Positions 10,423 through 56,724 of a stretch of DNA of 64,000 nucleotides are shown one piece after another. The DNA is taken from positions 1-64,000 of the forward strand of contig JAAPAO010000067.1 of the NCBI GenBank assembly GCA_013115145.1, in the 5' to 3' direction. The notes beneath the pieces are model-generated. The model was not told the DNA's origin and did no database searches. It was given only the letters and a program-made list of their open reading frames with translations. The stretch comes from Perkinsus chesapeaki (lineage: Eukaryota; Perkinsozoa; Perkinsida; Perkinsidae). Positions within the stretch are counted from its first letter, which is position 1; each line of letters begins with the position of its first letter. The position numbers and the translations under genes were made by a program.

Positions 10423-13400
10423 ATGATTACTGCTGCTGCCCTGCCATGGATTAGTAATCGACGTGTGAACAATGTCACCACCACCGAGGAGGGGAGTCGC
10501 CGCGGCCCTTCTGCCACTGTGGGCCGTAGACTTCGTGGACTGTACTTCCAGGAGCACTTCGCTCGAGCCAATCCTACATTTGCCCCTTTTACCGACTTCG
10601 GACGCCTCGTGATCGGGGTAGAGTCGGATGATGACGAGGATGATGATGAGGATGAGGAGTCGGAGGAGTCGGAGGAGTCGGAGGATAAGGAGTCGGATGA
10701 TGATGACGAGGATGATGATGAGGAGGAGGAGTCGGAGGAGGATGAGGAGGATGAGGATGAGGAGGATGAGGAGGAGTCGGAGGAGGAGGAGTCGGAAGAG
10801 GAGGCGGAGGAGGAGGAGGAGGTAGAGAGTGTTCAGGAGGGAGAGGATGTGCAATCTGCCGTCGAAGAGGAAGACGTGAAATCTGTGACGGGAGAAGGAG
10901 AAGAGAGGCCTCCTAGAATCCCCCCGGTCAATTACGATAGGTCGGAGCCTGCATTTGACAGGAGTGAAAGATACTATCAACATCAATTGCAACCCCGTGA
11001 AGAGCAACAGAACAGAGTTCGACCTCAGCAAATCGTCGTTCCCGGCTTCGGCGGTGGCAACTTTTACGGCGGAGCGGTGTTCTGCTATGATGCTCACCAG
11101 TAAGTCATTATACCTTTTATTATTGCAGTGTAAATGTCAGGTTGATGGGTAAAGTGTCTCCTAGAGGAGGAGGAAGAGGCTACCACCGCTATGAGCATTA
11201 TGATGAGTATGAGTTTGCCATTGGAAGGGTGGTGCCATCACCAACGACCAGGGATGTTGAGTATAGGATTATCGATCTCCTCGGTGAAGGTGTGTTCGGA
11301 AGTGTAAGTTTTCGAGGCAGCTGGTAAAGCAGCTTGAGTTTCGTTATAGGTCTTCTTGTGTGTGATGAGATCGCTCGCCAGGAGGTTTCCGCCGAGGCAG
11401 GTTGCCATGAAGGTCTCTAAGAACAATGGCAGGTAGTAGGCATCGCTGTTTCGGCTATCCCGTAGTATTGTGCTGGTTTCAGGAGCCTAAAAAATGCCGC
11501 CTTCGAAGCCCGTGCGCTTGAGAAGCTCAGCAAGAAATTTAATGTGCGAAATAATGAAGGGAAGGCCAGCTCCGGGCCAGGTGGGTCATTATCGTCTGCT
11601 ATCTTTATTATTATATATTCCCTTTATTATTATATATACCCTTTATTATTATATATTCCCTTTATTATTATATATTNNNNNNNNNNNNNNNNNNNNNNNN
11701 NNNNNNNNNNNNNNNNNNNNNNNNNNNNNNNNNNNNNNNNNNNNNNNNNNNNNNNNNNNNNNNNNNNNNNNNNNACTTTATTATTATATATACCCTTTAT
11801 TATTATATATTCCCTTTATTATTATATATTCCCTTTATTATTATATATACCCCCTCGCCTTTATCCCTACAGTACCTTAGGCCGTTCTGAGCAGTCCTAT
11901 ACTACCGACTACCTCTTCGCTCTATATTCACGTCTATATCTCGGGCTCCAATGCTGCTGCCCATCTCTACTCAGGTGATACTCCTTCAACCTGCACTTCA
12001 CCGTCAGTGAATCATGATTGGTACGAGCCCGAGTTCGAGACCCCCTTCCTTCAGTTCTACGACAGCTTTATGTACCTCGGTCGAGCCTGCATTGTGGTCG
12101 AGCGTATGGACATGACTTTATACGAGTAAGCATAATCGATCAATCGGGCGAGCGCTTCTTTTTGCATTACCTGTCTCAGTATGATTCGAATGAGCTGCAA
12201 CCCGGGACCGGGGCGACATGGGGGATACTGGGGGGTGCGACCGGGGCTGCCATTGGAGGTGGTGGCGGATTTAAGCGAACAGATACTTAAGAAGTTGGCG
12301 TTGATGAGGTTGACGGGTGTGATACACTGTGATCTGAAAATGGATAATATATTGATACGGCAAGGGAGGGAAGGGGAACCTATATGGAAGATGGAGGCTA
12401 AGATATCTGATTTTGGATGCGGAATGAGCGAGGGGGATCCGATACATAGGAAAGTCCAAAGTCGATATTACAGGGCTCCGGAGGCAATACTGGGGTTGAC
12501 TCCGTATAGCTGCGCCCTCGATGTGTGGTCACTGGGGTGCATGATGGCGGAGATGGCTACGAGAGAGCCGCTATTTGAAAGCACGGATGAGCTGGACCAG
12601 CTGAATAAGATGACTCGCATACTAGGGCCGATTCCGCACCATATGGTTCGAGATGCTATGGCGAGTGGTAGGGGAGGGCAGGTCCTTGAGTTCTTTGATC
12701 CAGTCGTTATATTGGACACGGTTTATCTGGACACCTACGAACGAGTGGTATGCCAAACAAGATATGTTCGGGAGGGACAGGATAATTTTGAGACGCCGGG
12801 CAGAGTGTTGCCGTGGATGTATTACAGTATGAATCCGGAGGAGACATGGCTCAGTACAACAAGGTTCTTGCCACTTTCGGAGAACCATCTAAGGGGGTGG
12901 GCGGAGGTCCAGGCTGGATTGACAGGTCAGACGACAGAGGAAGTTTACGGTCGTCCGTGCACGATGACGTGGAGGCTTTGGGACGGATTCAGGTTGAGGT
13001 TTCCTGGCGAGAGGATCAACACTAGAGTTCGTCTAGTAGAGTCGGGGCCGACGGTGTGTGGGGTACGGGAAATGGTCGTCGATACATCACAAATGATGTT
13101 CTCACCGAAGGGGATGGATAGATTGTTGAGATCTAAATGTGTGGAAGGGCTACAACAGAAGAGCAGTCCAATGGAGAAGAAATGGGCTCAGGCAACCGCG
13201 GCCTGTTTTGTCTGGGACCCAGAGTTGCGGGTCACCCCGGCCCAGTTGCTGAGCGCTCCCTTTTATAACTATCCGGATGACGTATCGCCGAAGAAGGGGG
13301 AATGGGAAGAGGGTAGTGAGTGGACGAGGCTTGAAGGCTTCTTCAAGAGGAAGGAGAGCTTCCTGGTGAAAGCTGCGGAACGATTAAGCGGCGGGAGGAA

Positions 13401-13647
13401 GTTCAATAGTATGGCCGGTCTGCAGCTTTACGCCGATCGAGTCGCTCGGAAATGGGCCAGTGACTTTCGCAAAGTGAGAAAGTCCGTCCCGGATGATGGT
13501 TATGTTCCCTCGAGTTTCCCCGGTCTTGATTTCTCCTATTTGTTCGGAATCGATAGTGAAGAGGAAGATGACTCTTGGGGAGCTCTGGATGATGTTGGGT
13601 CTCTGGAACGGTTGGTCTGTCGGGGGACAGTGAGTTGTGACATATAG
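10423..13647 (+). CDS. DYRK-like CMGC protein kinase with acidic N-terminus
   Basis: Six or so exons form a Ser/Thr (possibly dual-specificity) kinase. Exon 1 (10423 to about 11102) is a low-complexity extension with an acidic Asp/Glu/Ser run of about 75 residues. The kinase core shows the Gly-rich loop IIDLLGEGVFGSV (about 11265-11305), the catalytic Lys in QVAMKVSKN (about 11398-11425), an alpha-C exon SLKNAAFEARALEKL (about 11485-11530), the hinge CIVVERMDMTLYE (about 12088-12127), HCDLKMDNILI (about 12325), DFG in KISDFGCGM and QSRYYRAPE. HCD instead of HRD and the QSRxYRAPE block point to DYRK/PRP4 relatives. An insert of about 150 residues separates the CMGC-like LDQLNKMTRILG block from the late-lobe block FVWDPELRVTPAQLLSAPF. 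A long C-terminal tail follows. All catalytic residues are present, so it should be active. Exon boundaries around the assembly gap are uncertain. Confidence 0.85.
11600..11855. repeat. 19-bp AT-rich tandem repeat with assembly gap
   Basis: Units of CCCTTTATTATTATATATT (last base T or A) run head to tail on both sides of 98 N bases (11677-11774). The array lies in an intron of the kinase gene, between the alpha-C exon and the exon that begins near 11908. The gap probably marks collapse of the array, so the true copy number is unknown. Confidence 0.93.
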
Positions 13648-17300: not shown

Positions 17301-20300
17301 GTAGCATTTTGTGGTTCGCGGTGTTTTGAAGTCCACTTAGCCAGTTGAGATGCTTATGTCCTAAAGCCCTCCGCTCAGCTTTGTTTGCACTTAGTAACTG
17401 ATCCTTGGGAGGCCATAGAGAAACAAGGAACTTTCCATATTTCAGGGGAAAGCTATTCGTATGAAGAAGGGTCATCACGGCACACCACCACAGCTGTGGG
17501 AAGTCACCGCTCCGCCCAAGAACTTCCAAAACGAAACCCTCGAGTTCTTCCCCCGAATCTCATTGCCGCCCCCTCCACCGCCCCCGCCTCCTCCACCACC
17601 GCTCGATCCTCCTCGAGGATCTCCTCGACACAGAAATGAGCATCGGAGAGAGCGGGCGACGAGCGGCGGCGGCAACCGAGCGGGTGTGAGGAAGCATTGG
17701 CGGCAGCTCCTTGGGGCAGTTGTCAAGCAGCTCCAAGATATCCCTCAGGGATGCTTCTTTCTCAAGCCTGTACATAAATATACGGACATCCCCATTGACA
17801 ATAGGAAAGCATACTACCGGCTTATTAATCGGCCGATCGATTTGGAGACGATATCGCGGAATTTAGACCGGTACCCGAGCCCCAAGGACTTCGTGGAAGA
17901 TCTCGAACTCCTCTTCCAGAACTGCTTCGCTTTCAATAAGCCCGGGGACGATGTCTATATCGCAGGGTCCCAGCTGAGGAAAATATACAGAGAGAGTTAT
18001 GAGCTTATGCGAGAGCAAATAGAAGAGAGCTATGCAGTCGAGTTGGAGGAGGGCGTGGCTTCAAAGCCGGGGGAGTGGAACCTGCCCAGGTTCGATCCCG
18101 AGCCGCCGAAATTTGAAGTCACGAAAGGGTGGTGGAAAGATGCCGAAGAAGGCACTTTAAGGAAGCGACCGTTGGAGGAGGAAACAGCGGCTGTTAAAGA
18201 GGAGGAAGGGGAGGCGTTAAGGAAACGGGCGAGGGTGGAGGAGGGAAATAGAAGGGAGGAAAAGAAAGAGAAAAAGAAGGGGAAAAAGGGGAGTGGGGAT
18301 AAGAAACATAAAGGGGGGCAGCAGCAAAGGAAGGCGGTGGGGGATGATGGGGATGATGAGCTGGATAAGGCAAGGGAGAAGGTGGTGGCTAGAATATTAA
18401 TGAAGGAGGAGAAGAAGAGAGAAGGGGATAAAGGGATAAGTAAGAATGTTGTGATAGATAATGATAAGACAACAGCTAGTGAAGGATCGGTTAAACTAGC
18501 TAGTAGGAAGAGCAAGGGAAGCATTAATGCAGCAGAAGGTGAAACTAAGAAAGGGAGCAAGAAAGGAGCAAAGAAGAGCACGGCGGGTAGCAAAGGCCGA
18601 AGCAAAGGGCGAAGCAAGAGCAAGAAAGGCGAGCTGGCCTCCCCATCCCCAACTGCATCTGAAGGGCCAACCGACTCGAGTCCGGCGACGATCAGTGAAA
18701 AGAGCCCGTCGAGCCCGGCTCTGGTTGAAGACGAGAAGAACGCTCTTGGTGCGTCATCAGCAAGCCCAAGTCCATTGCTGGACGGCAAGTCGAGCCCGTC
18801 TCCGACAGGGGGGAGTCCAAGCCCAAGTGCTAGTAGCTCTGGCGATGATTTGGCGCCGATATCCTCACTGGTGTTTGATAAGAATGCAGAGGCCGAGAAA
18901 AAGATGCAAAGCATAGTGTCGAGCTTCCATGAAGCAATGGTGAAGTCTGATAAACAGACAACTCACGGCAAGAAGCGGAAGAAGCGAGAATCTGCGGGCT
19001 CCTCCTCGAAGCCCAATCGTTCGCCCTCCCCCTCACCGTCTGGTTCGGAGGGCTCCCCTGCCGCTAGTAGCCTGTGCAGCCCATCTCCCTCGGAGGACGA
19101 GAAAGCGAGTGAGATTGAGGGAGAAGTTTTCGATGGTATATGGAGGCTGATTTTGGGGCAGGTTCCAAGGAGCGAAGGAAGAGCAAGAAAAAGCATCATC
19201 ACCGTCATCATCACCGGCATCACGAGCACTCTTCGAAAAAGCGTCGTCTAGGATCAGGGGACTCCCCCTTGCCATCGGAGCTATGCTCTTCTCCTTCTGA
19301 GATGGCAGCTTCACCGGTAGGAACTTCATTAGTGAACACATGCCAACTGTTGGACGTACTTTTGCAGTCGCCGGAGTCATCCGAGAGCCGTCCGTCACCA
19401 CCTAGCCCGCCACTGGAAAACGCCTCGGCATACGACCTTCCCGTGGGAGAGGCTAGGGACACTGCTGGTGAGATGGTCATGCCGTCTTTGGCCTGTCATA
19501 TTGTGTTCCTCAGTATCTCCTCTTCCGCCTCCTTTGACATTGCCCATTCCTTCGAAGAGAGCGCAGGGTACTTTCTGACGCTCTTCGTCGAACCCCACTG
19601 AGATCTCGCTGCAGGTCACGCTTCGAGTATCGCTGAAAAGGCAAGCCTGCCTGTTGAGGCAAAGAAGCAAGAGGCTCTCTCTCCGAAGCTTGTGGCGCTC
19701 GGAGAAGGAAGCAGTCCGGAAGATTCTTCTGAAGATCTCTTCGGGGAGCCGATTCGAGGTGGGTTCAGGTTTGGCAGTGATGCGTTCTTGAGGGCCTCCA
19801 GCCGTTCTAGGGCCAGGAAACATCCGAATTGCGAAATTTTTCCGTCAGATGACGCAGCGACACCTGAGCTTACTGACTCGATCACATCATCTCCCGTCGG
19901 GAACGGCACTGTCCGGAAAGGGACGGATACCCCTGTTGTTGTGGCGTCACCCAGTGAGGAGGCGACGTCTACGTCTGAGACGGGGCGAGCGAACGAAGAG
20001 AAAAAGAAGTCTATCTTGGACGCATTTGCTTCACCACCGTCTTCTAAGAAAAGCAGCAAGTCTCGATCATCACACAAACTGAAGGTGATGCGACTTTTCC
20101 TTAACTGTCACGGATGATGCTCACAGGGAGTCTCCAAAGAGAATCGCCACGCTCATCGCTCATCAACATCGGACGTTGACGGTCGGAGTGTGTCGGTGGC
20201 TTCAGTAGATGGGCATGACTGGAGATGGTATTGAGCCAACACCATCTATTGCCAAACTTATCTATACTAGGTACTTATCTCGAATCGTTAGCGCCACTCG

Positions 20301-42465: not shown

Positions 42466-44784
42466 TTAGGACTCGTCTAATCGAGCAAAAGATACTTTAT
42501 GTAATGAAGCATCGAACTGAGTATAATAGTTCCTGAAATAAGGCTTACCAAGGAACCACTTATCTCTGTGATCCGGATGCAGAATTTCGCCAAAGAGAAC
42601 CCTGCAAGTACCACAATCAATAGTACTAGGAGCTGTATAATCTTCTGGTTTGAATGTAATTTTAACCTCACCTCCGCCATAACGTTGTAACACTATATGT
42701 ACATCCGGTAACTTCTTAACATCTTTACATAAAACCGTCCACCCTTGCTTAGCGTCCTTAACTTCTAGCTTATCCAACGTAGCCTTATTCAGAGCACTGG
42801 CCATCTCGTCTATGAGGTTATCAAGAGCATATGTTGGAGCATATATTAGTGGATAGGCACTGGCGAACCCAACCTCGCTGAAGTCTTTCACCTTACCAAA
42901 CGGTGTGGATTGCCCATTTCTAGTAGTATAACCTCGTATACCATTGACCCTAGGCCAAGTGCTGTTGTCAATTGGTCTTAGTGCACTACTCAGCTTACCT
43001 TCTGTAAGTGAGGGAGGGAGTCTAAACCCACCGAGAGAAAGGATCCCGAGGGCGTCAGTGGGCGAACGTTGACCATAGATAGAGAACTGTTTATGATTCT
43101 CTAGAGGTAGTTTACTCATTTGAGACAGTAGTGAAGGTCCTAGTAGTGACGTATCTGGGAAGGCAAGTCCAAGAGACTGGTAACCATTAGGATAGGCGCT
43201 GGATCCAAACTCTGAAACCGCAGTTATTGGAATCTTCACCGAAGTTGCTCCAATGGTCACGTAAGTGCCCTCGAGCGAGTAAATAGAACGATTGGTTAAC
43301 ATAGGATCTGTGTATTGTATTGGTACCTTATTTGGACAGTCGTGACTGTTGAGCGCTGCCGTGCAGCTATAGCACTCCTCCGGACGGCCACAACCTTCGC
43401 TCAGGATCGTCTTATCCAGGAGTATGATAGAATCCACCGAAGTATCAGCAACAACGTTGAGAGGTTGACGATCCACTGTTAAAATAGTTACCATGTCGTA
43501 GTCCAGAGCAAGTTGGATAGAGCCGTAGAGGGACGACGGCTTGGACTTCTGGTTGAAGTAGATCCTATTCTTTGGTTTGAACGAGAACGCCATATTATTA
43601 GCCCGGAATGCCGGCCAACCCAAAATAACATATGGCCTGTTATTATTTTGATTCAGTCTGGTAAAACTATCATCTTTAGGAGCACCGAATAGCCATCTAC
43701 ATCTACCATCACGTTTGTCGCCCAAAGGCATGACAGTTGCCCAATTCGGGATCAGAAAGCTCCTGGTGGTTGATCCGTGAGCGAAGAAGACAAAGTTGAA
43801 CTCCCAGTCAGGTAAATCGTCCACCACTTCACATGGGATAGTGTACCCTTCGATGGCATCTTCGACCGCAATCTTGGTCAAAAAGTGCCCTGTCCTTTTG
43901 AGAGCATCATTCACAGCCTTAATGTATTTAGAGTACAGGTCCTCACTTCTAACATAAACCAGCGGTGCCCCGGAAACGATACCACAGAATGGAGCAACGG
44001 GTCCGTGGTTCCACCCGGCACTGGCATATAGTGTCCGGGAATTGCCGCCAAAATTGGCAGCTACAGAACCAGCCGAACCCATGTAGTGACTTTGGCGAAG
44101 ATCCTTGAAGAGCTTCCTGAGATCCTCGTGGAAGTCAAATGCATCATTCTCAAAGAAGCCCTCCTTTTCGGGGTCGAGGCCATATTTTACACTTCCCGGT
44201 GGACCAAGCGGAGAGTCTGCCGAGAAAATGCCGAATGCACAATGTTCAGCGAGCTTATTGGGCGCACCATAGAGTTGCTCGAAGAATAGCCCTTCGGCGG
44301 TGCTTTCCTTCCCTTGTACGCCAGCAAAGCCAAGACCAAACCTAGTGTCAACAGGGCTCTCAACCCCCGGTCTTTTGTCATCAGGCTCCAAGTATACGAT
44401 ATGCTGTATATTCATACTCTTCGTTTTGTTACCATCTAACGATACTTCAGCGGTAGTATCAGCAAAACGCTGGGCATAACCATAGTACCCAGAATCGGTT
44501 GCTGCAGTAATTGGAGCTCGGGGGCAACGCTCATAACAGTTGTAGCACTTGTCGCCCGAGCAAGTGCGTTCGTGACCAAAGGCTCCTCGTGGCTGATGGG
44601 TATGAAGCCTTACCGAAGGGGCACCGGTATCGACAGTCCCAAGTACAATCTGGCCGTCGAACATGATGGTCGAACGGAAATCGTAGGTTAAAGGCAAGGA
44701 TACTTGGCAGTCTACCAGCAGCATCAATGTCGACCCACACAGAAGGTACCAACACAAGGTGATAGAGTATAATGAGTGTTCCAT
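42466..44784 (-). CDS. Secreted protein with two tandem pepsin-like units, probably inactive
   Basis: One uninterrupted frame of about 772 residues. The start at 44784 is chosen because it opens directly into a signal peptide (MEHSLYSITLCWYLLCGSTL); a start 24 codons upstream only adds unconserved residues. Unit 1 carries FDGQIVLGTVDTGAPSVRL, a canonical first active-site motif, followed by a Cys-rich loop and FGLGFAGVQGKES. Unit 2 (from about residue 445) has LNVVADTSVDSIILL at the equivalent place and LGLAFPDTSLLGPSLLSQM. Where an A1 peptidase has its second Asp-Thr/Ser-Gly, unit 1 reads FCGIVSGAPLVYV and unit 2 reads VGFASAYPLIYA, so the second catalytic Asp is missing in both. Conclusion: pepsin fold, A1 family, duplicated, likely non-catalytic. 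The role is unknown. Absence of introns contrasts with its neighbours. Confidence 0.82.
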   Translation of the reverse strand: MEHSLYSITLCWYLLCGSTLMLLVDCQVSLPLTYDFRSTIMFDGQIVLGTVDTGAPSVRLHTHQPRGAFGHERTCSGDKCYNCYERCPRAPITAATDSGYYGYAQRFADTTAEVSLDGNKTKSMNIQHIVYLEPDDKRPGVESPVDTRFGLGFAGVQGKESTAEGLFFEQLYGAPNKLAEHCAFGIFSADSPLGPPGSVKYGLDPEKEGFFENDAFDFHEDLRKLFKDLRQSHYMGSAGSVAANFGGNSRTLYASAGWNHGPVAPFCGIVSGAPLVYVRSEDLYSKYIKAVNDALKRTGHFLTKIAVEDAIEGYTIPCEVVDDLPDWEFNFVFFAHGSTTRSFLIPNWATVMPLGDKRDGRCRWLFGAPKDDSFTRLNQNNNRPYVILGWPAFRANNMAFSFKPKNRIYFNQKSKPSSLYGSIQLALDYDMVTILTVDRQPLNVVADTSVDSIILLDKTILSEGCGRPEECYSCTAALNSHDCPNKVPIQYTDPMLTNRSIYSLEGTYVTIGATSVKIPITAVSEFGSSAYPNGYQSLGLAFPDTSLLGPSLLSQMSKLPLENHKQFSIYGQRSPTDALGILSLGGFRLPPSLTEGKLSSALRPIDNSTWPRVNGIRGYTTRNGQSTPFGKVKDFSEVGFASAYPLIYAPTYALDNLIDEMASALNKATLDKLEVKDAKQGWTVLCKDVKKLPDVHIVLQRYGGGEVKITFKPEDYTAPSTIDCGTCRVLFGEILHPDHRDKWFLGKPYFRNYYTQFDASLHKVSFARLDES

Positions 44785-47700
44785 TGGTGGTAGAACCAAA
44801 GTTGAAACTAAAAAGGACGCATTATGTAATGTACTGCACAAGGAAGCACAGCTCACCGCGCCTTAAGCTCAGCTAGCTATCGCGTAGCTTTCTCGAAGCT
44901 TACTGACCCCCGTAAGGTGCGGCGCGATGTGGAGCGATATAGTATATTCAGTTCTTCACCCAACTCGCGTCAGACCGCTATCCTGCCAATAGCAGGGCAC
45001 CAAAACACATTGGCTAGCGAATCATCTAGTGATTTGTACCCCTCAGAGATCAAGCTGTTAGTGATGTGTCTGACTCAGTTTATTTGTTGATATGCGTGTG
45101 CGCCCTGTAGTTGTACGCATACGCATAGCTAAGTCGGTGCAAAAGGCTCCCTTGATGGTTAAGCTCGGCTTTCATTTATCTCTAACTTGAGTTACACCAG
45201 GGCGACTCCTCTTCCCCTCCCACTACTGGTCCCTTAACTGCTCAACCTTTACACAAGCTTACGAGTGAATGAAAGTTGAGAAACAGAAAACACGGTACAA
45301 TGCATGACAAACGTGTCACAGTCGTGTGACGCGAAATCCTGCTGAAGCAACCTACAATATTGCCCCATGCTTAGTACCAGCTCGAGATGACACTGTGTTT
45401 CCCGAGTTTAATTGTTCGTATAACAATGACATGAATTCTCTAAATTTCCCACTCGGGTCAATATCCGAATCACTTCCACGTTGCGGGACCTCTGCAAGCA
45501 GCAGACTCGATAAGTGCATGCGTGTCGATTGCAGCGTTACCACGCTCCATGCTCTAGGATTTAAATGATTATCAAAGATGGATAACTACACCGGCGCGTC
45601 AGTGTAATGATTAGATGTAAGATTGCTAGGTCTTATGCTTCGGACACAACAGGTATATCCTTTCCTCGTTGAGTGAGCCTAAGTTTCAGCTAAATTTAGC
45701 CAAGACGCATGATTCGAGCCTTCTATCGAATGCAGCATAATCAGAGTTACGCGCCTTGTGCGAACAGTTTGTTGGATTTCGTACACTGTATGAATCACTG
45801 GCTGATTTACCACTCATCACATGTCTAGCTGTCCGCAATCGACCTTGCCTGGTTAAACACTTCCCTCGACACCACTCAACTCCATCGGCGCGTACATTTA
45901 CGAACCCGCCTAAGCTATTTTCGAGAAATTCGGCTAGGCTCGTCGACGGAGGTGAATCGAGGAGTGGCAAGGCGGCCCGAGATTATAGGGCCTTCGCTAT
46001 TAGCACGAGTAGCTATTCTATATTGTATTTGCCTCAATAATGTCGGCTAATTCAGAGTCTGAATTTCAAACAGTCCAATTATTAAAACAACTACGCTACC
46101 TGTAAGGCCTTTAAATCTAGCCAAGTTGACACAAGGGTATGGATGGATGGTACGGAACGTGGAGTAGGGCAGTTAATCAGATCCCAGGGAAGGTTCAATC
46201 ACGTATTAACCACACCAGCATCGCGCGCTTCGGACGGCTCTGCTCCCCTGGAGGCAGCAGGGGCGGTCACACAGCTCCCTGAAGATATAGAGAAGCCCTC
46301 AATTTGAAGATCGCATTGGCGACGCCAACTTGGCGTCTCGTGAAGTAGAACGTATCTCAAAGTCTCCACAGATTGGCATCATTACTAATGATTCATTATT
46401 CGGTGCTTCGAGTCGGTGGTGAGCGGAGATCTTGTCCATTTTCGCAACCTAGATACGTCGGCCCTCTCAAACAATGGGGCCCATTGAATGGGCTCTCTAT
46501 TATCAGTAGGGAGTTAATACAGTAGTAGGCTACTAGGGAGTCCCTAGTTCCGAGATACTCTTGGAAGTGATACGCGGACCATCTCCTACAGCAGTGACTG
46601 TCAAATGCTTCTTAGGAGCGTGACTGCTGATGCAGTCCGCTTCAAGTTCAATAGGCTTCAATAGGCTTAGAGTCCTACTCGCCAAGAGTCACTCTTGTCA
46701 AGAGCTGCAATATCTTCATAAATCTTTATAGGCTCAACGTCAGATTTGCTTCCTGGTCTAAGCGCCAGGTCAAACCCTGAACGCTATTCTGTCATCTAAT
46801 CGGAACGGACTGTTCCCTCCATGCGGGATTGAATGTACCCTTCCTGTTCCCTATGCCTCTTCACGCAGCCTTCTCATTAGCTAGCTGAAGTTACTAACTG
46901 TCTTCACCCGCCTCATTATACTCAATCTCGCTCACACCTGTATAGCATCCGCTACAGATGATCTGTACCAGAGCCTTTTGTAGGGAGAAGGTAATGTGGG
47001 CTCCTTTTGATCATCGGGGAGAATGATTCTCCCCGATGATCAAAAGGATTCTCCGGAAATCTGTAGTTTACAGACTGTATATGACTTTGCTTTTTTAAGT
47101 TGAAACGGAGCCCAATTTGACAAATCGAATTTGTGTCTTAATGACCTGGTACAGTACCAGGAATGGCGTCCATTGGAATACCTACCGAAAGTGGAGATAC
47201 TCTCCTTATAGCAGGATAAGGTGATGAGGGAGCGGTGGTGTTTGAGGAAGGCAGATGTAGGCGAAAATACTTTGAAGACGAGGGGATGGATGTAGAGGGC
47301 AGCATAAGAAGACTGAGGATTTAGGGCACTGAAGCAGCTAGATCTTATTAGGAATTAGATAAATGATGTACTTTCACAGGGAATCGAACAATGGACCTTT
47401 CGATTGCCTCCATTGATCAGCTTTGAAGACTGCATGGCAATCGCTATTTTTCTTCCCACCAGCCACCCTTATTCTCATCCAAGCCGGCCCTACTTTAGGC
47501 TCTAAAGTTTAGGGCCGCCTTGGATGAGATTAGCGGGTTTAATTCTTAAGGGCACCTGAACATCTTCCTGGAGTCCAGGAATCCTGGTGCCCGAGCGCCT
47601 ATCTGATGAGGTTGCGAGCAGCTTCGGAGTCGGCTTCGTCTGAATGCGTCCTCCGAGAATCATTCTCGGATGAGTCACTCCTGAGAAGGAATCGAGCAAG

Positions 47701-48899: not shown

Positions 48900-51800
48900 A
48901 TGCCATCGCTCAGTTCGGCTCCCCCAGCAGCTCTAGGGGGTTCTATAATGAACTCCCATATCAAGTTGCAATACTGTCCTTCACCAGAAGTAAGCCGGGG
49001 ACTGCAAGTTGACCTATTTTGTATCGTTGGCAAGTTGACCTATTTTGTATCTTTAGATTGCCTGTCTTCGTATCATGGATGCGATATCGCACTATGGACA
49101 TTCCCAGGCTACCACTGCACCATCTCATACCAGTAAGGTTGACCATGCTTCTGGTCCCTGTAAAGATACCTTGTAGGGATTCTCCGTATTGAGTGCCCGA
49201 CATCTCTCACCATCGAGAGCGCTGATGGGTTGCCGAAGTATCTCTTACGGCTATTACGTTACCAATGCTTTGGACGACAGTCTCGTAAGTATCTTGACGC
49301 AGTAATTGGGTTCTCAGAGCTGAGTCCTTTCCAAAAGCCTTCTATTTAACGCGGTGGACGGTCTGCGAGTTTTTCACATCAGGCAGGTTATTGCAGTGTC
49401 ACCATGGCGCCTTGAATCCATTATCGAGTTCGTAATCGATTACCGCATTGCATTTTACGTGTAGAATGGCTGTTGAGTAGCAGCTGAACAAGAAATAAGT
49501 ATTGAAGGTCTCCTCAGTCTGTTGCTTTGTCAGGTTCCCTATTTGTGGCGCGTGACTGTTCTTATTCTCTGGCTGGATGGGGCCAAGCCCACGTTGCATC
49601 CTCATTGGAGACTATGCTATTAGCTGATACCGACAAGAGTGTTAGATACGTTGGAGGTTAGTTCGTGTCCCATGGCAACTTAGCTCCATTTTATTAATTT
49701 AACTTTTACGTGCTAATTTCAAGCATTTCCGACTCGATATATTACTGACTTCAGTTTGATATTTCCGACATTTCGTATAATATTTTCAATTTTCGGTGAA
49801 TTTCGGGGCGCTTTTTGTCTTGAATAATGAGAGATAAATGTGGCCAATGATCTCACAAACCACATCGGAACCTCTCCAGAGTTCTTGGTAGTTTTGTTTC
49901 CATCAGTCTGCCACTTTTCCCGTATTAGCACTCTCCGTCTCGGAATCACCCATTGCTATCGCACACTTGACTTGTCGTCATTCTCTCAGGCCGCCGATTC
50001 GACGAGGATCGAGCGGTAGGCCATGAATGGCGCGATTTCTTCCGCGATCCAACTCAAGAGTAATGCCGCAGTAGTAAACTGCTGCCTGGTTGATCGTCTC
50101 TATCATCAGGTACTGGGTACTACCTCGTCTGGAGATATCAACAGATGGTATCTTTCCTGATATCACGTGCACGGTCGCAGCTAATCTGCTTTATGACGAT
50201 CGCACTGGCAATATTCTTAAAGGAGAATCGGATGAGGGTAGTATTTTATGGGTGTTGTGGCGGGAGCGGTAGAGGTGATTTTCAGCTCTGTCAACATTGG
50301 TCTCCTTTAAATGGCCGACGATGCTCAGCGATCTTAGTACTGGTCCGGCCCCTCTGCCACCCCTCTCTGGCGATATAGCGCAGGCAAACACGCTGGAAGA
50401 GTAATAATGGTTGCGGGGTTCGAACGCAGGACCTTCGGATTAATTTGAAGAGGATCGGCGCTCGACTATTAGGCTAACATTTCTCTTAGATACACTGATA
50501 CTGTCAACACAGCTATTTCCAAATTCCGTAACGGTTCTTTAGATAAAGTGGTAAGCTGCTAATCTATTGCATACCGCTCCTCCCTTATATAGTAATGCTT
50601 TTGCAGGTAATTTCCCTTCGGTCCACGTTAAGTTTTGTTGATTCCGCCAACCCGATGGATCCCATCGATTGGCTTATTACTGTTGTTGAAGCAGTACCGG
50701 ATACCAAAAGATATGTAATATATTTACCACGCGGGATGCTGCTCCTGCCACGTCGAGAAAAAATCATGTGGAAAAATTCTTGGTGTTTCCGTGCTTCCCT
50801 ACTCTGTGCAGCGAAGTTTGAATGCATTATAATCTCTTCCCACCGCCTATCACTATCATTGAAGGTTTCATTTAGAAGGTCGTTCCTAGGAGGGTTTTCT
50901 CATTCTTGTCTTATGTCAGACTATCTATCTGGAGCCCCCGGTCGGCGGTGACAGTGCTTTCGTTTGCCTAACTCCCGAAAGACTTTGCCGTGTTGTGGGT
51001 GGCCATATCGATACGGAGGCGGTCGCTGGCACTTGGAAACCATCTGAGATCAACACTAAAGATGAAGTAAAGGCTTCGAGAGGGGATGGTAGTGTAGTTC
51101 GCTTCAGGCCGATGTAAAGCGAACTACCGAGCATAGCACCGTGACTAAGTACATAAAGGGCATACTTTGTCGGAAGGCACATGACGTAAGGGTCGGGGAA
51201 TTGTGGGCCAATTTGGTTACATTAAATTGCTTATATTGATACTTGCTATATCTTACCATGCTTGATATATTTACTAATGTGTGGTTAGCTTTTATAGCAT
51301 TATCTTTTAATACCGTATTTCTCTCAACTTTATGATAGGTAGTACGTGTCTGTAACCTTTTCATTATCAGGTACACGTTAGTAAGGTTCATCTATTGAAA
51401 TTAAAGGAGTTGGTGCATTGCAAGCAGATGCTTGAGGGAACAGTTGACTTGGTCTCCAACTGTGCTGAAACTAACGTCAATGGTAGTAGTATTACTACTT
51501 TAGGCTAGTACTAGGATCTAGCATTTCCTACTACTGTAGTAGGAAATGCTGATACCTCTATTCTCAGCGCAGTATGGCTATAGTCTCTCGGCACTCCTTG
51601 CTTGATGTGGCTTTGGAGGTCCACCGAAAAGCCTTATGTTTATGCTCTTTAATGAACTTAAAACTGAACGAAGAGTATGTTTTATTTATTTAAACTCGTC
51701 TTTGTCACATTCTGCATGCTTCTCAGAATCGATCTACTGTACATTGGTTCTAAGGTACTGTTGAAGCCCCAAGGACCGGCCGAGAGGTGCTCGAGTGGCT

Positions 51801-54800
51801 GCTCCGAGATCTGCATCCTACTCCGGCGGTGGGAGGTCAACCGTTAAAAGATGCTATGACATTTATTAGAGCTCGAGAGCCGTTTGATAGAGGTACTTAC
51901 TATTATTATTGTCCCTCGATGAGCATTCCATCACAGGCTTCTTTGCGGCACCATGCGGGGTGGTATCATCAGACGGCGGAGAGCTTGCAGTGTCCTTGAG
52001 GAGCGCTTTGGTGGAGCGTCGTCATGGATCCAAGGTCATACATAGGGCTCGGGAGTGTCGGGAATGTTTCTTATCGGTCGTAGAGTTGTCCTTGATTTTC
52101 TACATAGGGCTGATCTTAAGTGTTTACAAACACCTGCGTAGGTTACGGAAATGCCATTAGAGATGCTTGAAGAGTTACTTAAGAAATTTATTTAAGCCTT
52201 ATAAAAGTAGCGGTATCTTATTCGATAATAATAAGGGATGTCTTCAAACTAGGCCGCAGCAGGCTTTGATTATCTCATTAGTAGTATGCTTTTTGGTAGG
52301 TCCATGTGATGGCCGGAGCAGGCCTGATCGATGGCTCAGTGCCAAAGGACGAGTGGAATGAGATACGCCTCAAAATGAGACAGTTTGTTGGGACTCTTTC
52401 TGATGGTGAGCGGAGCGAAGCGATTCGTGAATTACGATTTTGCTGTTAGGTTCGAGGCCTGCTTTACAGGACCCGAAAGATTTCCCGAACTTCAACACCT
52501 TCTGGTGTGCAGTTTTTGTTGATGAATTAGTTCGACTTGGCATTAAACATTTCGTAAGTTGCCATCACGTTGTGCGTGCGTGCACGTGCGCATCCGTTGG
52601 TCCTCAGGTGGTGTGCCCCGGCAGCCGATCGACTCCATTAACGATAGCTGTTACGCAACATCCTCAAACGTCTCATATTGTAATGAAAAATGGATCAGGT
52701 TTGAGCGGAGCGAAGTTTTATTATTCTTGTTAAGGTTCACACTGATGAAAGGGGCGCGGCGTTCTACGCTCTTGGGTATGCTAAAGCGACTGGCTTGCCG
52801 GCACCTGTTATAGTTACTAGTGGTGAGATAGGGTCGAAGAGGGTTACCCGCATTGATGGCCGATATTTTGGATTAATGGAAACAGTCGCATCAACAGTGA
52901 AATGTCAGAAAACTCTTTGATGTCTTCGCAGTCGAATTTATTTCGGGCACGATCTTCGGTTTTCGGAAATTAGATTGTTTTTTGGGTTTCGGCTGCGAGA
53001 AGCCAGGAGATATGAGTGCGTCGGTTAACCAATTATACTTTACTGTTTTCAGGTTCAGCAGTTGCTAATTTGCTGCCAGCAGTGACCGAGGCCGAGGCCG
53101 CTCGAGTGCCGATGATGCTTTTGACAGCGGACAGACCCGCTGAACTAAGAGATACTGGGTAGGGGCATTATTGGTAATTTCGTGGCGCAGTGACGATTGT
53201 TTCCAGGAGCAACCAGACCACTGATCATATGGGTATCCTGCGGTCCTTCGCTGTGTGGTCTCGAGACATCGCTCCGCCGAGTGAAGCCTTACCGATTCGA
53301 TCGCTACTGAGTGACGTTGATTATGCCGTTGAACGGTGTCTGAGCCAGAGGGGAATGATCCATATGAACCTCCAGTTTCGGGAGAATCTTGCGCCGGAAG
53401 GAGGACCAGTAGGGAATTGAATTGATGGTCTGGATTATCAAAAGGTTTGAGTTCAGGTTCGTGGTGGCCAGTATGGCGAGACGAGCGCGTTCCATGTGCC
53501 AGAAGATGGCCGGTTCACTCGTTGGCAGACGAGATCGACCGAGCCTTTTACACTTCCGGCTCGTCGATCGGAGAGGATTATCAGCGATGAGAGAATTAAG
53601 GAAATGATAGGCAAGTTGGAAGGGTTTTCCTTTCCCCGTTAAGGGCTGTATTTCAGGCTCAAATACAGTGGTTTTGGTTGTGGGGGCATTATCGTCACCG
53701 ATGGAGGCAGCGGCAATCGATGCTGCTGCGGATAAACTACAATGCCTTGTGTTGGCTGACGTCACAAGCGGTAGTATAGAAGGCACTGGTGTTGGGTTAC
53801 TTCAGCGGGATACTTTGGTTGTTCGAATCTGATGTTCTTAAATTGTTTCCAGAGGGATGTATCACCTTCTGGTTCATTATTGAGATATTTCCGGTCGCAA
53901 TAGCGCGAGTCTGACGGGGCTTGGGGGAGTTAGAGTCGCTGAAATTGGAAGTATAATTTAATAAGAGCCGTGCGTCATCTGTATTCAAGTTGGAAATACC
54001 GTAGCTTTCTCTGGCTTCATTTTAAACTGCTGCTATGTAGGTTGCCGGCGGGAATGCCTTCCGAGTCTATGTCTCGGTTCCCAGCCAGTAGTGGATCTGC
54101 TGGAGCTCAGTCGTCCAGTGGTTGTCAGACTGGGTGGTGCGTTGATATCTAAGCAAGTACAAGGATGGATGTCGTCCAAGATGGGGGGGCCTGTAGGAAC
54201 TTCATACCGCTCCTTTCTCTGATCTTATGTCAAGGTTAAGGATCAAATCAGAGTAATTGATGTCCCTATCAGACATGATGTTGACTGGACAAGTAAGCAA
54301 TATCGCTATACAGATATGGAATCCTTCGTCCAGAAAATTTTCGGAAAATCTTATTGGAATTTTCGGGTTTATTCTCGTATGCGTACGTTGGTGAGTCGAA
54401 GTAGAAATGTTGAATTCGAAAGGTTCAACTGTGATTGAGCTTCAATTGTGAATGATAGCTTTCCCGTCAGGCACCACCACCCTCGATGCCACTTGCTCCG
54501 AGTTCGCTCGTATGGTTGATGATCTGAGTGTATCGCCACAGGTACCCCAGCCATGCCTCGCTTCCTCCAGACCCTGCTGCTTGTTCAGGTGCTCAAATCT
54601 AATAGGGTGCTTCGTGACAGGGTTAAGGCGATCAGTCGTCGGGTGGACAAAACCGTTGAAGATGAACTTGGCAATTCCTGTAGCATTGAAGCGCTAGACG
54701 TAGGGATCTATTCCTGGCAGGCACTGAACCTAATATTTCACGAACTCTGGCTAGTTTTGTGGCGCGCAAGAATGAGGCATTGGTCATCAGTAGCAGCATG

Positions 54801-55655
54801 AGCTGTCGTAATTTCGACACGTTCGTGAGTACATTGTTTCTTCGTGCCTGTAATCTCCAATTTTCAGTGTCCTCTCGGCTTGGATCTTCCTCGGGTATCC
54901 TGTAGTAGAGGGGTCAGTGGCATCGACGGCACAATAAGTATTTGCCTGCTTCGCTCCGCTCCTGTTGTTGTATTTACTTTTCAGGCACGGTTATTGGATA
55001 CGCCTTTGGACTTGGTCGAGCGACGAATCTTTTGATTGGTGATGTGGCTAGTATACACGATTTGAACTCGATAGTTCAGTAAGATTCTAAATGAGGTCGA
55101 TTGGCTGCAGCTGCAGTTGGCTGCGTATCTTAGGTTGGCCAACTACCTGAGTGGGCGTGGTGTGATGGGCGACGTTAAGGTTCCTTTGGTTAAGCTTGTT
55201 GTCTGCAACAACGATGGTGGCAGTATGTTCAAGTTCGTGCCGATCGGGAAGTATTCTGATGACGTTGGGTTCAATGAGAACTTCCGAACTCCCAGTGGAG
55301 TGTCATTCGCCGGCGCTGCTAAGATGATGGGCTTGAATCACTGCTCGACTGTCGATAGCCTCGAGAAACTGACCAATGCCCTCGATAAGAGCGGTCTTAC
55401 GGAGATTGTAAGTGGTAGCGGAGTAGTCGAGCTTCGTTGTTCATGGTGGCAGTGAAGAGAATTTAAGCTATGGAACTTTCTCGCGGGAAGGAATTCTTGT
55501 GGAATTCTATTTTGGAATCAACCACTGGCATGTCTGTCTGATAGATACCAGAGACCACCCAAGATGAGGACGTGGCATTGCGCCGGCGGATATCAGCTGC
55601 TATTGGTCAGGTTGTTGATGACACGCTTAGGCTTCATCCGAGAGTTAAATTAAGG
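48900..55655 (+). CDS. menF-menD: MenF-MenD fusion (isochorismate synthase and SEPHCHC synthase), PHYLLO-like
   Basis: More than 20 exons joined by phase. MenF part: LESIIEF (to 49431), [18 protein letters not shown] (49518-49656), [16 protein letters not shown] (49990-50059), [10 protein letters not shown] (50110-50237), [16 protein letters not shown] (50286-50400), [14 protein letters not shown] with the catalytic-type Lys (50490-50550, 50607-50714), FVCLTPERL and DTEAVAGT (50920-51066), [13 protein letters not shown] (51108-51185), LHPTPAVGG and EPFDRG (51727-51892), [11 protein letters not shown] (51937-52034), [15 protein letters not shown] (52300-52405). The next exon (52450-52553) runs, in frame, from the linker [15 protein letters not shown] into Men[28 protein letters not shown] (52608-52679), [12 protein letters not shown] (52735-52822), [14 protein letters not shown] (53053-53158), [13 protein letters not shown] (53207-53408), [17 protein letters not shown] (about 54117-54167), [34 protein letters not shown] and CNNDGGSMF (thiamine diphosphate site). 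Predicted: chorismate to isochorismate, then SEPHCHC with 2-oxoglutarate. Start at 48900 ([11 protein letters not shown]) is tentative. An in-frame TAA sits at 51751. Confidence 0.9.
50401..50489 (-). other. Intron made of an antisense tRNA-like sequence
   Basis: The 89-nt intron between TLEE and [11 protein letters not shown] of MenF, read on the minus strand, contains TAGCCTAATAGTCGAG (like an A box) and GCGTTCGAACC (like a B box), about 45 bases apart, plus a CCTCTTC...GAAGG anticodon-arm-like stem. The 5' half of an acceptor stem is missing, so it is a tRNA relic or chance likeness rather than a working tRNA. Confidence 0.35.
51520..51550. repeat. Short palindrome, 14-bp arms, in a MenF intron
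   Basis: AGCATTTCCTACTA (51520-51533) and TAGTAGGAAATGCT (51537-51550) are perfect reverse complements with a 3-base centre. It lies in the intron after the exon 51444-51482 ([13 protein letters not shown]). Confidence 0.93.
52406..52449 (+). other. 44-nt intron carrying the GAGCGGAGCGAAGCG core
   Basis: GTGAGCGGAGCGAAGCG...GCTGTTAG intron joining the end of the MenF part to the linker and MenD. Removing it keeps the frame (phase 1). The core recurs in introns at 52680-52734, 54938-54984 (inverted) and 37029-37073 of the acyl-CoA synthetase. Confidence 0.85.
53159..53206 (+). other. 48-nt intron with the AATTTCGTGGCGCAGTGACG core
   Basis: GT...CAG intron between LRDTG and SNQTTDH in MenD, a conserved family block, so its borders are well fixed. 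The core of 21 bases is the same as in the acyl-CoA synthetase intron at 39579-39622. Confidence 0.85.
53611..53656 (+). other. Probable GC-AG intron in MenD
   Basis: The phase needed to join [13 protein letters not shown] to [13 protein letters not shown] is met by a GCAAGT donor at 53611 (exon ending ..ATAG) and the TTTCAG acceptor at 53651-53656. The GT alternatives nearby give the wrong phase. GCAAGT after AG is the usual context of rare GC-AG introns. Confidence 0.65.
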
Positions 55656-55869
55656 TGCGCGAAGTGAATAGTGGGATTTTATCATCATTATAAGTTTATA
55701 CACGTATCCAGAAACGTTTTAATCTCCGCCTGGGCCTGAAAAGATACTAGAGTACTAATTTTCGAAATCAATTATTGCCGTTCTTGATGAAAATAAATCA
55801 CAGTAAAATTTCCGTAAGTTCCACGCAACTGCAGCGAGCTTTATACAGCGGATAGGTGGGCAGCAACTT

Positions 55870-56724
55870 ATGAGAAAGATGACTGAGACAAATCCTGCAG
55901 CACTGGGGGAAATGATACCATGTTCATGTGTTACTGTTTTCAGTTATATCCGCGGCGGTACTCCTGGTAAGGCTCCCCTCGTGCTTCTACATGGCTGGAT
56001 GGGCAGCGCGAAGTCCTTCTCCGATTGGCTTGGGTGTGACGAACTTGCTGCCAAGTACGACATCATTGCCATTAGTCTACCTGGTCACGGTGACTCGTTG
56101 CCTCTTGAGAGCAGCACTTTGTTCGATTACGGTATGTCGGCCACGATCCCCAACCTCCGTGGTTTGGTCAAGGAGTTGTTCCACAATAAGCCGGTCACGT
56201 TATGTGGGTACTCGCTTGGCGGGCGAGTAGCTCTTGAATGGGCGCGTCGTGCTCCAGCGGATATCACTCGTTTGGTCATTCTTGCCGCCAGCACCTTCGT
56301 TGGTGGCCCTGCGGTGCGCGAGAAGCGCTGGTGGACTGACTGCGCCTGGGCTGACAAACTTGAGTCTCGCAATCTGGACCTTGGTCTGTTCCTCACCAAA
56401 TGGTATGGCTCAGGCTCGGTGTTTGCAGACCTGCCGACCCGGAGGCCTGAGGAGTTCTTCGGCCAATGGTTGCCATCACGTGTCGGTGAAGCTGCTAATC
56501 CCTTAGGATGGGCGAAGTCAATGTTGGCCATGAGCCAGGCGTGGGGTGTCGACTGCACTGATGTCCCTGTTGATAGATTTGTCGCTGGTGCGTTGGACGC
56601 CAAATACTCTCGTATGAAGATATCTCTGGCAAGCGATAAAGATAGGATAATCATTCCAGATGTGGGCCACAGTCTTCTTTGGGAAGTTGACTGTGAGACC
56701 CTCATTCACGCTGCAATGCTGTAG
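55870..56724 (+). CDS. menH: MenH (SHCHC synthase) alpha/beta hydrolase, adjacent to or fused with MenF-MenD
   Basis: MenH eliminates pyruvate from SEPHCHC to give SHCHC, the step after MenD. The frame shows LVLLHGWMGSAKSFSDW, ISLPGHGDSLPLE, the nucleophile elbow TLCGYSLGGRVALEWA, the family block REKRWWTDCAWADKLE with FLTKWYGSGSVFADL, an acidic residue in VAGALDAKYS and the His in IPDVGHSLLWE, so the Ser-Asp-His triad is complete. Length is 284 residues from the ATG at 55870. The upstream MenD exon ends near 55655 at HPRVKL plus two bases. An acceptor just after the ATG (ATGAG, with AAAGATGAC following) would join it in frame as VKL-R-KMTETNP, making a three-domain protein. A separate mRNA starting at 55870 is the alternative. 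There is no space for a MenC domain in between. Confidence 0.9.
   Translation: MRKMTETNPAALGEMIPCSCVTVFSYIRGGTPGKAPLVLLHGWMGSAKSFSDWLGCDELAAKYDIIAISLPGHGDSLPLESSTLFDYGMSATIPNLRGLVKELFHNKPVTLCGYSLGGRVALEWARRAPADITRLVILAASTFVGGPAVREKRWWTDCAWADKLESRNLDLGLFLTKWYGSGSVFADLPTRRPEEFFGQWLPSRVGEAANPLGWAKSMLAMSQAWGVDCTDVPVDRFVAGALDAKYSRMKISLASDKDRIIIPDVGHSLLWEVDCETLIHAAML

What the first reader, a model, noticed from the sequence alone, without database searches (positions are those of the whole stretch)
48900..56724. PHYLLO-like MenF-MenD(-MenH) locus in a protist nuclear genome
Seen: consecutive, phase-consistent exons encode MenF and MenD motifs in one reading frame with a linker of about 15 residues, and MenH follows on the same strand. 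Known: plants carry a nuclear MenF-MenD-MenC-MenH fusion called PHYLLO, and bacteria use separate genes. Inference: this organism makes, or made, a menaquinone/phylloquinone-type naphthoquinone from chorismate, possibly in a relict plastid or peroxisome. I know of no description of such a fusion from a heterotrophic alveolate, but could not search.
Basis: partly seen in the sequence, partly recalled or inferred. Interest (0 to 1): 0.92.

Follow-up and report, generated by a model that had tools for sequence, protein, structure and literature searches.

The report
Three-enzyme vitamin K fusion in Perkinsus
A non-photosynthetic shellfish parasite carries an intact nuclear gene that fuses three of the enzymes that start vitamin K synthesis in algae, with the fourth enzyme split off into a separate gene, which suggests that the parasite still makes a vitamin K-like compound for something other than photosynthesis.

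Summary
At 48900-56724 (+) 30 exons, with 28 GT-AG and one GC-AG intron, join into one 1336-codon frame: MenF-MenD-MenH. MenH is in the same frame, not merely downstream. Two Perkinsus olseni gene models are the nearest proteins; one spans both junctions at 76.5% identity. The host is a Perkinsus, not contamination. The 19 active-site positions tested in MenF, MenD and MenH are kept. MenC is absent from the fusion but encoded alone on another contig, with its 7 tested positions kept and a stand-alone P. marinus orthologue. MenF-MenD nests among algal fusions of order F-D-H-C, next to dinoflagellates; the lone MenC does too, more weakly. Best reading: an inherited algal PHYLLO whose MenC module was split off, making o-succinylbenzoate from chorismate. 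MenA-like, MenG/UbiE-like and chorismate synthase sequences are present; MenB and MenE were not identified, so the product is inferred. A four-module relative occurs in a Hematodinium transcriptome, a dinoflagellate reported to have lost its plastid, so the retained function may not be plastidial. Euglena longa is the known parallel. My limited open-access searches showed no report of it. New variant of a known kind.

The parts
48900..52405 (+). Exons 1-13: MenF (isochorismate synthase) module, aa 1-455 (48900-48989, 49057-49132, 49534-49656, 49990-50059, 50110-50268, 50490-50550, 50607-50714, 50920-51066, 51108-51185, 51371-51482, 51755-51892, 51937-52034, 52300-52405)
   Evidence: Splice model; PF00425 exon hit; TIGR00543; residues equivalent to E. 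coli K190, E240, E284, E416 kept. Exons 1-2 the least certain.
52406..52449 (+). Phase-1 GT-AG intron (44 nt) at the MenF/MenD border; with it in place the frame meets a stop
   Evidence: P. olseni P0002 continuous across it (QFVGTLSDGVRPALKEPMEFPNFNTFW)
52450..55654 (+). Exons 14-29: MenD (SEPHCHC synthase) module, aa about 463-1070
   Evidence: (TIGR00173 over its cut-off); 10 of 10 tested E. coli MenD positions kept
53611..53656 (+). GC-AG intron (GCAAGT...CAG, 46 nt) inside MenD, the only non-GT one of 29
   Evidence: removing it agrees with the P. olseni protein P0001 (KELISSGTVVLVVG against KEMIGSNTVVLVVG)
55655..55943 (+). Phase-2 GT-AG intron (289 nt) joining MenD to MenH in one frame; with it in place the frame meets a stop
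   Evidence: P. olseni P0002 reads through the same junction
55944..56724 (+). Exon 30: MenH (SHCHC synthase, alpha/beta hydrolase) module and stop codon, aa 1076-1336
   Evidence: TIGR03695; 5 of 5 tested E. coli MenH positions kept; C-terminus AAML here, AAKL in P. olseni

Best explanation
The gene encodes one 1336-aa protein of Perkinsus with three active-site modules in pathway order: MenF turns chorismate into isochorismate, MenD (thiamine diphosphate, 2-oxoglutarate) makes SEPHCHC, and MenH eliminates pyruvate to give SHCHC. A stand-alone MenC, on contig C276 of the same genome, then makes o-succinylbenzoate. The protein descends from the F-D-H-C PHYLLO fusion of algae with red-type plastids, inherited through the common ancestor with dinoflagellates, and the MenC module was split off in the Perkinsus line. 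The o-succinylbenzoate most likely feeds a vitamin K-type naphthoquinone used in a redox role unrelated to photosynthesis, with the middle steps (MenE, MenB) done by diverged or unrecognised enzymes. Shown: gene structure, fusion, kept residues, conservation in the genus, position on the tree. Inferred: activity, the split, the route beyond o-succinylbenzoate, product, compartment and use.
For: One frame over 30 exons; P. olseni orthologues, one spanning the junctions; 19 of 19 tested positions kept in MenF, MenD and MenH and 7 of 7 in the separate MenC (roles recalled); MenC gene with a P. marinus orthologue, 60% identity over 75% of it; domain orders FDHC 93, FDCH 23, FDH 5, DHC 3, FD 1 among 125 proteins; Perkinsus inside the dinoflagellate-type clade (100/99) and Perkinsus outside all the F-D-H-C group rejected, p-AU 0.00125 (group chosen after the quick tree); Perkinsus MenC inside a 13-row group with fused MenC (99/95), and outside all fused MenC p-AU 0.030; chorismate synthase exons, MenA-like (E 7e-16, below cut-offs) and MenG/UbiE-like (E 1.5e-54, over its cut-off) hand-joined fragments. 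E. longa makes 5'-hydroxyphylloquinone with PHYLLO, MenA and MenG but no recognisable MenE or MenB (PMC7580956, section 7 and passages).
Against: No MenB was found: the best hit (C88) scores best as ordinary enoyl-CoA hydratase; of the other five contigs hit, C811, C298, C157 and C81 show no MenB signature by eye and C552 was not read. MenE hits are other adenylating enzymes by my reading. MenG/UbiE could be the ubiquinone enzyme COQ5, and the MenA-like gene resembles UBIAD1 (both recalled). MenC alone does not reject a place just outside the alveolate-type fused MenC (p-AU 0.153) or outside the whole F-D-H-C group of MenC (0.059). No transcript of this gene and no chemistry was seen here.
Confidence: 0.76

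Rival explanations
1. The upper pathway is kept but does not lead to vitamin K: isochorismate or o-succinylbenzoate feeds another product, and the MenA-like and UbiE-like genes serve salvage (UBIAD1-like) and ubiquinone.
For: MenB and MenE not identified in three MenB-type searches and one MenE search.
Against: E. longa lacks recognisable MenE and MenB too, yet makes 5'-hydroxyphylloquinone (PMC7580956); the exon-by-exon search is weak: it also missed the MenD middle domain that is present.
Confidence: 0.22
2. MenH is a separate gene starting at its own ATG (55870) downstream of a MenF-MenD gene.
For: An ORF 55870-56724 with an ATG exists; the P. olseni model P0001 is garbled at this junction.
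Against: The P. olseni model P0002 runs through the junction; the stretch before 55944 ends in TTACTGTTTTCAG, a good acceptor; MenD is directly followed by MenH in 101 of the 125 proteins scored (FDHC 93, FDH 5, DHC 3).
Confidence: 0.05
3. MenC was never fused in the Perkinsus line (three-module ancestor, C added later to relatives), rather than split off.
For: p-AU 0.153 and 0.059 for trees that keep fused MenC rows together without Perkinsus; P0017, in the dinoflagellate clade, also reads F-D-H only.
Against: F-D-H-C occurs both inside (dinoflagellates, Hematodinium) and outside (diatoms, P0020-P0023) the group that Perkinsus joins on the F-D tree, so C would have to be added at the same end more than once; p-AU 0.030 against Perkinsus outside all fused MenC.
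Confidence: 0.15
4. Contaminating alga or a dead gene.
For: None found; gene loss would be expected after loss of photosynthesis.
Against: Orthologues in P. olseni and P. marinus, intact frame, tested catalytic positions kept; of nine other open frames of the window scanned, three carry Pfam domains, all of eukaryotic kinds: kinase, bromodomain, aspartyl protease.
Confidence: 0.02

Closest known systems
PHYLLO of diatoms (MenF-MenD-MenH-MenC plus a DUF), Gross et al. 2008, PMC2412073 (passages seen)
   Same: Same order F-D-H, nuclear, one polypeptide; same large clade
   Different: MenC and DUF modules absent from the Perkinsus protein; the diatoms are photosynthetic
PHYLLO-type F-D-H-C proteins of dinoflagellates (Durusdinium P0015, Effrenium P0018 as a D-H-C piece, and unnamed relatives such as P0006)
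   Same: Nearest clade; P0003-P0008 are 34-38% identical to the draft protein
   Different: MenC fused at the C-terminus
F-D-H-C protein in the Hematodinium transcriptome (EukProt GEMP01000645.1, P0024)
   Same: Parasitic heterotroph; 25 of 26 tested positions kept (MenH R168 is K)
   Different: MenC still fused; Hematodinium is stated to lack a plastid altogether (passage in PMC6733595)
PHYLLO of plants and green algae (MenF-MenD-MenC-MenH), passages in PMC6189191 and PMC2412073
   Same: Same activities in total
   Different: Order F-D-C-H, MenC inside the fusion, different clade
Euglena longa PHYLLO pathway (PMC7580956, section 7 and passages)
   Same: Non-photosynthetic; PHYLLO kept; MenE and MenB not recognisable
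   Different: Green-derived plastid; the quinone was demonstrated; PHYLLO described there as catalysing all four steps

Membership tests
PHYLLO (four-module fusion) | MenF, MenD, MenC and MenH modules in one polypeptide | tested here: not met
   F, D and H only in the window protein and in two partial P. olseni models; no C match; MenC encoded alone on C276 and alone in P. marinus
PHYLLO (four-module fusion) | MenF followed directly by MenD in one frame, in a nuclear gene with introns | tested here: met
   P. olseni models
PHYLLO (four-module fusion) | Common descent with PHYLLO proteins | tested here: met
   MenF-MenD inside the F-D-H-C PHYLLO clade, p-AU 0.00125 against exclusion (group chosen)
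PHYLLO (four-module fusion) | Catalytic residues of each module present kept | tested here: met
   MenF 4 of 4, MenD 10 of 10, MenH 5 of 5; a fifth MenF position that I had recalled as R347 is a glycine in E. coli and was dropped
PHYLLO (four-module fusion) | Enzyme activity, chorismate to o-succinylbenzoate | not testable with these tools
   No biochemistry
o-Succinylbenzoate synthase (MenC), gene on C276 | Enolase-superfamily catalytic lysines and metal ligands | tested here: met
   7 of 7; best NCBIfam model is MenC TIGR01927, E 2.1e-21 but 76.5 bits against a cut-off of 130.55
Complete menaquinone/phylloquinone pathway | MenB and MenE present | tested here: inconclusive
   Not identified, but the exon-wise search also missed a MenD domain known to be present
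Complete menaquinone/phylloquinone pathway | MenA-type prenyltransferase and MenG-type methyltransferase present | tested here: inconclusive
   MenA-like fragment E 7e-16, below cut-off; UbiE/MenG-like over the TIGR01934 cut-off; could be UBIAD1-type and COQ5
Plastid-targeted or peroxisomal protein | Bipartite plastid leader or PTS1/PTS2 | tested here: inconclusive
   No leader seen by eye; C-terminus AML here, AKL (PTS1-like, recalled) in P. olseni; no predictor run

The most novel reading that the evidence does not exclude
Parasitic alveolates of the dinoflagellate line kept the algal vitamin K head-group pathway as a non-plastid redox system: Perkinsus with a split PHYLLO, and Hematodinium with a whole one even though it is reported to have lost its plastid. 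The retained naphthoquinone would serve mitochondrial or plasma-membrane electron transfer, possibly with new enzymes for the MenE and MenB steps.
Probability: 0.33. Interest if true: 0.82.

Novelty: new variant of a known kind. Interest (0 to 1): 0.62.

Why it matters
Phylloquinone's best-established job is in photosystem I (stated in PMC7580956). An intact, conserved upper pathway in a non-photosynthetic parasite, and in a transcriptome of a dinoflagellate reported to lack a plastid, says that selection keeps it for another reason. It gives a genetic handle on the open question of whether and how alveolate parasites make vitamin K (vitamin K forms have been reported from Plasmodium; abstract and passages of PMC9069557). 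It also suggests that fusion of these enzymes can be undone, one module at a time.

Tried and rejected
Rejected: contamination, pseudogene, and MenH as a separate gene (see rivals). The first gene model (1317 aa) was corrected at three introns (10, 20 and 27) with the P. olseni proteins; the first homologue search and the NCBIfam scan were run with that draft. C88, at first noted as a MenB candidate, is an ordinary enoyl-CoA hydratase. Of the other crotonase-type contigs hit, C811, C298, C157 and C81 were read by eye and show no MenB signature; C552 was not read. Two of the three MR_MLE_C hits (C179) are enolase. C857, C535, C143, C723 and C233 were read as NRPS-like and long-chain acyl-CoA ligase type enzymes, not MenE (my reading). 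The other chorismate-binding hit, C77, reads by eye as a folate-type (PabA-PabB-PabC-like) protein, not an isochorismate synthase; my attempt to confirm that with NCBIfam failed because the reference held stop codons and was not repeated. The MenD middle-domain search of the genome found nothing, which shows that exon-wise misses mean little. Trees: the quick F-D tree used 39 of 125 rows plus E. coli, the careful one 25; the MenC trees used 62 rows and 34 rows, chosen by me for spread; the groups tested by AU were named after the quick trees were seen. In one search one recalled MenF position (R347) was not an arginine in E. coli and was dropped. ARAGORN found no tRNA in the window. Host identity: the size and contig count recall P. 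chesapeaki to me, but no call names the assembly. The protein lists are capped: one search listed 120 of 200, from 7999 candidates scored. No structure prediction was run.

Full report
What is there. The window is part of contig C632 of a 35,393,606-base, 884-contig assembly. Between 48900 and 56724 on the + strand, 30 exons join into one open frame of 1336 codons; 28 introns are GT-AG and one is GC-AG, 41 to 401 nt long. In 20 of the 29 introns, reading through in the upstream frame meets a stop; of the other nine, eight have lengths that shift the frame and one (intron 14, 54 nt) does neither. The order is MenF (aa 1-455), MenD (463-1070), MenH (1076-1336). The two borders between modules coincide with introns 13 and 29.

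Is it real. The nearest proteins are two unnamed P. olseni gene models, FOZ61_006018 and FOZ62_022742, both partial. The second matches the refined model at 76.5% over 843 aligned positions with 3 gaps and runs across both module junctions. The first (67% over 1157, 112 gaps) has a foreign N-terminus and a garbled MenD-MenH junction, most likely a wrong gene call. So the gene belongs to Perkinsus and is conserved between species. By identity the species here is not the sequenced P. olseni or P. marinus; P. chesapeaki is my recollection from assembly size, not a tool result.

Residues. E. coli MenF, MenD, MenH and MenC were aligned with the Perkinsus and related proteins. Kept in this protein: MenF 4 of 4 tested, MenD 10 of 10, MenH 5 of 5. 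The positions and their roles are recalled from the enzymology of the E. coli proteins.

The missing module. Among 125 proteins (P0001-P0124 and the window protein), 119 match MenC: in 96 it follows MenH (FDHC 93, DHC 3) and in 23 it precedes it (FDCH). Perkinsus has MenC as its own gene: C276, two exons joined by hand, 384 aa, best NCBIfam model MenC though below its cut-off, 7 of 7 tested positions kept, and a P. marinus orthologue of 296 aa, 60% identical over 75% of it. P0017, in the dinoflagellate clade, may be a second MenC-less case; P0025 is probably a cut gene model, since its near twin P0023 is FDHC.

Where it comes from. On MenF-MenD the three Perkinsus rows join dinoflagellate-type proteins and the pair P0022 and P0024: 18 rows with Durusdinium and Effrenium, SH-aLRT 100, and 11 rows without Effrenium, 100/99. 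A tree with Perkinsus outside the whole F-D-H-C group is rejected (p-AU 0.00125). The lone MenC falls in a 13-row group with the dinoflagellate-type, P0022/P0024 and P0020-P0023 fused MenC domains (99/95), though its exact place there is open (88/91 for the 10-row fork). A place outside all fused MenC is weakly rejected (p-AU 0.030); a place just outside the F-D-H-C group of MenC (0.059) or outside the alveolate-type MenC (0.153) is not. A split-off of MenC from an F-D-H-C ancestor is the simplest account. That this group stems from red-type plastids is general knowledge; only some rows bear names.

Hematodinium. P0024 is EukProt GEMP01000645.1, labelled a complete ORF; a paper cites another GEMP01 record as Hematodinium (PMC6642578, passage), so by accession prefix it is from that transcriptome. 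It holds all four modules in the order F-D-H-C with 25 of 26 tested positions kept (MenH R168 is K). Hematodinium is stated to have lost its plastid (PMC6733595, passage). If this transcript is its own, the pathway can outlive the plastid. Its sister P0022 has a proline at the MenH histidine in the alignment.

The rest of the pathway. Chorismate synthase exons are present (C201), as are a MenA-type gene (C10; a second one by motif at C36) and a UbiE/MenG-type gene (C244). MenB and MenE were not identified. The search works exon by exon and missed a MenD domain known to be there, so this is not proof of absence. E. longa makes 5'-hydroxyphylloquinone although MenE and MenB cannot be recognised in it (PMC7580956).

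Compartment. The model has no evident leader and MenF homology starts near its first residue; PHYLLO of E. gracilis is described as apparently cytosolic (PMC7580956, section 7). The C-terminus is AML here and AKL in P. olseni, which might hint at peroxisomes; no predictor was run. The N-terminus is the weakest part: the ATG at 48900 follows an acceptor-like TTTGTTGTAG, fitting spliced-leader addition, but the frame stays open upstream without another ATG to 48741 and no transcript was seen.

Known or new. F-D-H-C in diatoms and F-D-C-H in green algae are known (PMC2412073, passages), as is retention of the pathway in E. longa. I found no paper on this pathway in Perkinsus in the open-access library: Perkinsus with menaquinone gave 3 papers, judged by title, with phylloquinone 2, passages seen, with plastid and tocopherol 4, with relict plastid 7. 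PHYLLO with dinoflagellate gave 48, of which 20 were listed., which also named Hematodinium and isochorismate, asked for any two terms and showed 15 of 1,113 and 12 of 858, so they say little, and no clean Hematodinium search was made. Subscription journals are not covered.

Noticed in passing
G000:C133:7627-8287 and 17407-17601 (L019, L020, L022): Two neighbouring genes with homogentisate phytyltransferase-like motifs (best NCBIfam PRK12887, E 1.1e-11 and 3.7e-11 for two fragments): Perkinsus may also keep a tocopherol-type pathway.
   Followed up: partly
P0024 (EukProt GEMP01000645.1) and P0022: Four-module PHYLLO in a Hematodinium transcriptome, and a sister protein of source jgi whose MenH histidine is replaced by proline in the alignment.
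   Followed up: partly
P0017: 1425-aa protein within the dinoflagellate clade that reads MenF-MenD-MenH only and seems to end properly: a possible second MenC-less fusion.
   Followed up: partly
G000:C53:59662-60081 and G000:C465:18988-19404 (L015, L018): Two UbiA-family membrane proteins with motif GMNDMADLDVDAINDRK or GLNDMVDFDTDQLNDRK, of a subfamily I could not name.
   Followed up: no
G000:C857:58199-59542 (L023): Adenylation domain that reads as the NRPS type, in an open frame of 824 aa.
   Followed up: no
G000:C77:23460-24242 (L008): The genome's other chorismate-binding enzyme, by eye a folate-type PabA-PabB-PabC-like fusion in one long open frame.
   Followed up: partly
G000:C298:16194-16373 (L047): Crotonase-like frame with many asparagine runs, unlike the other genes read here; not followed.
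   Followed up: no
window 53611-53656: GC-AG intron with GCAAGT donor among 28 GT-AG introns.
   Followed up: yes
window 12181-13647, 17461-19251, 42466-44856: Open frames with protein kinase, bromodomain and aspartyl protease domains, three of nine frames scanned: ordinary eukaryotic neighbours.
   Followed up: partly
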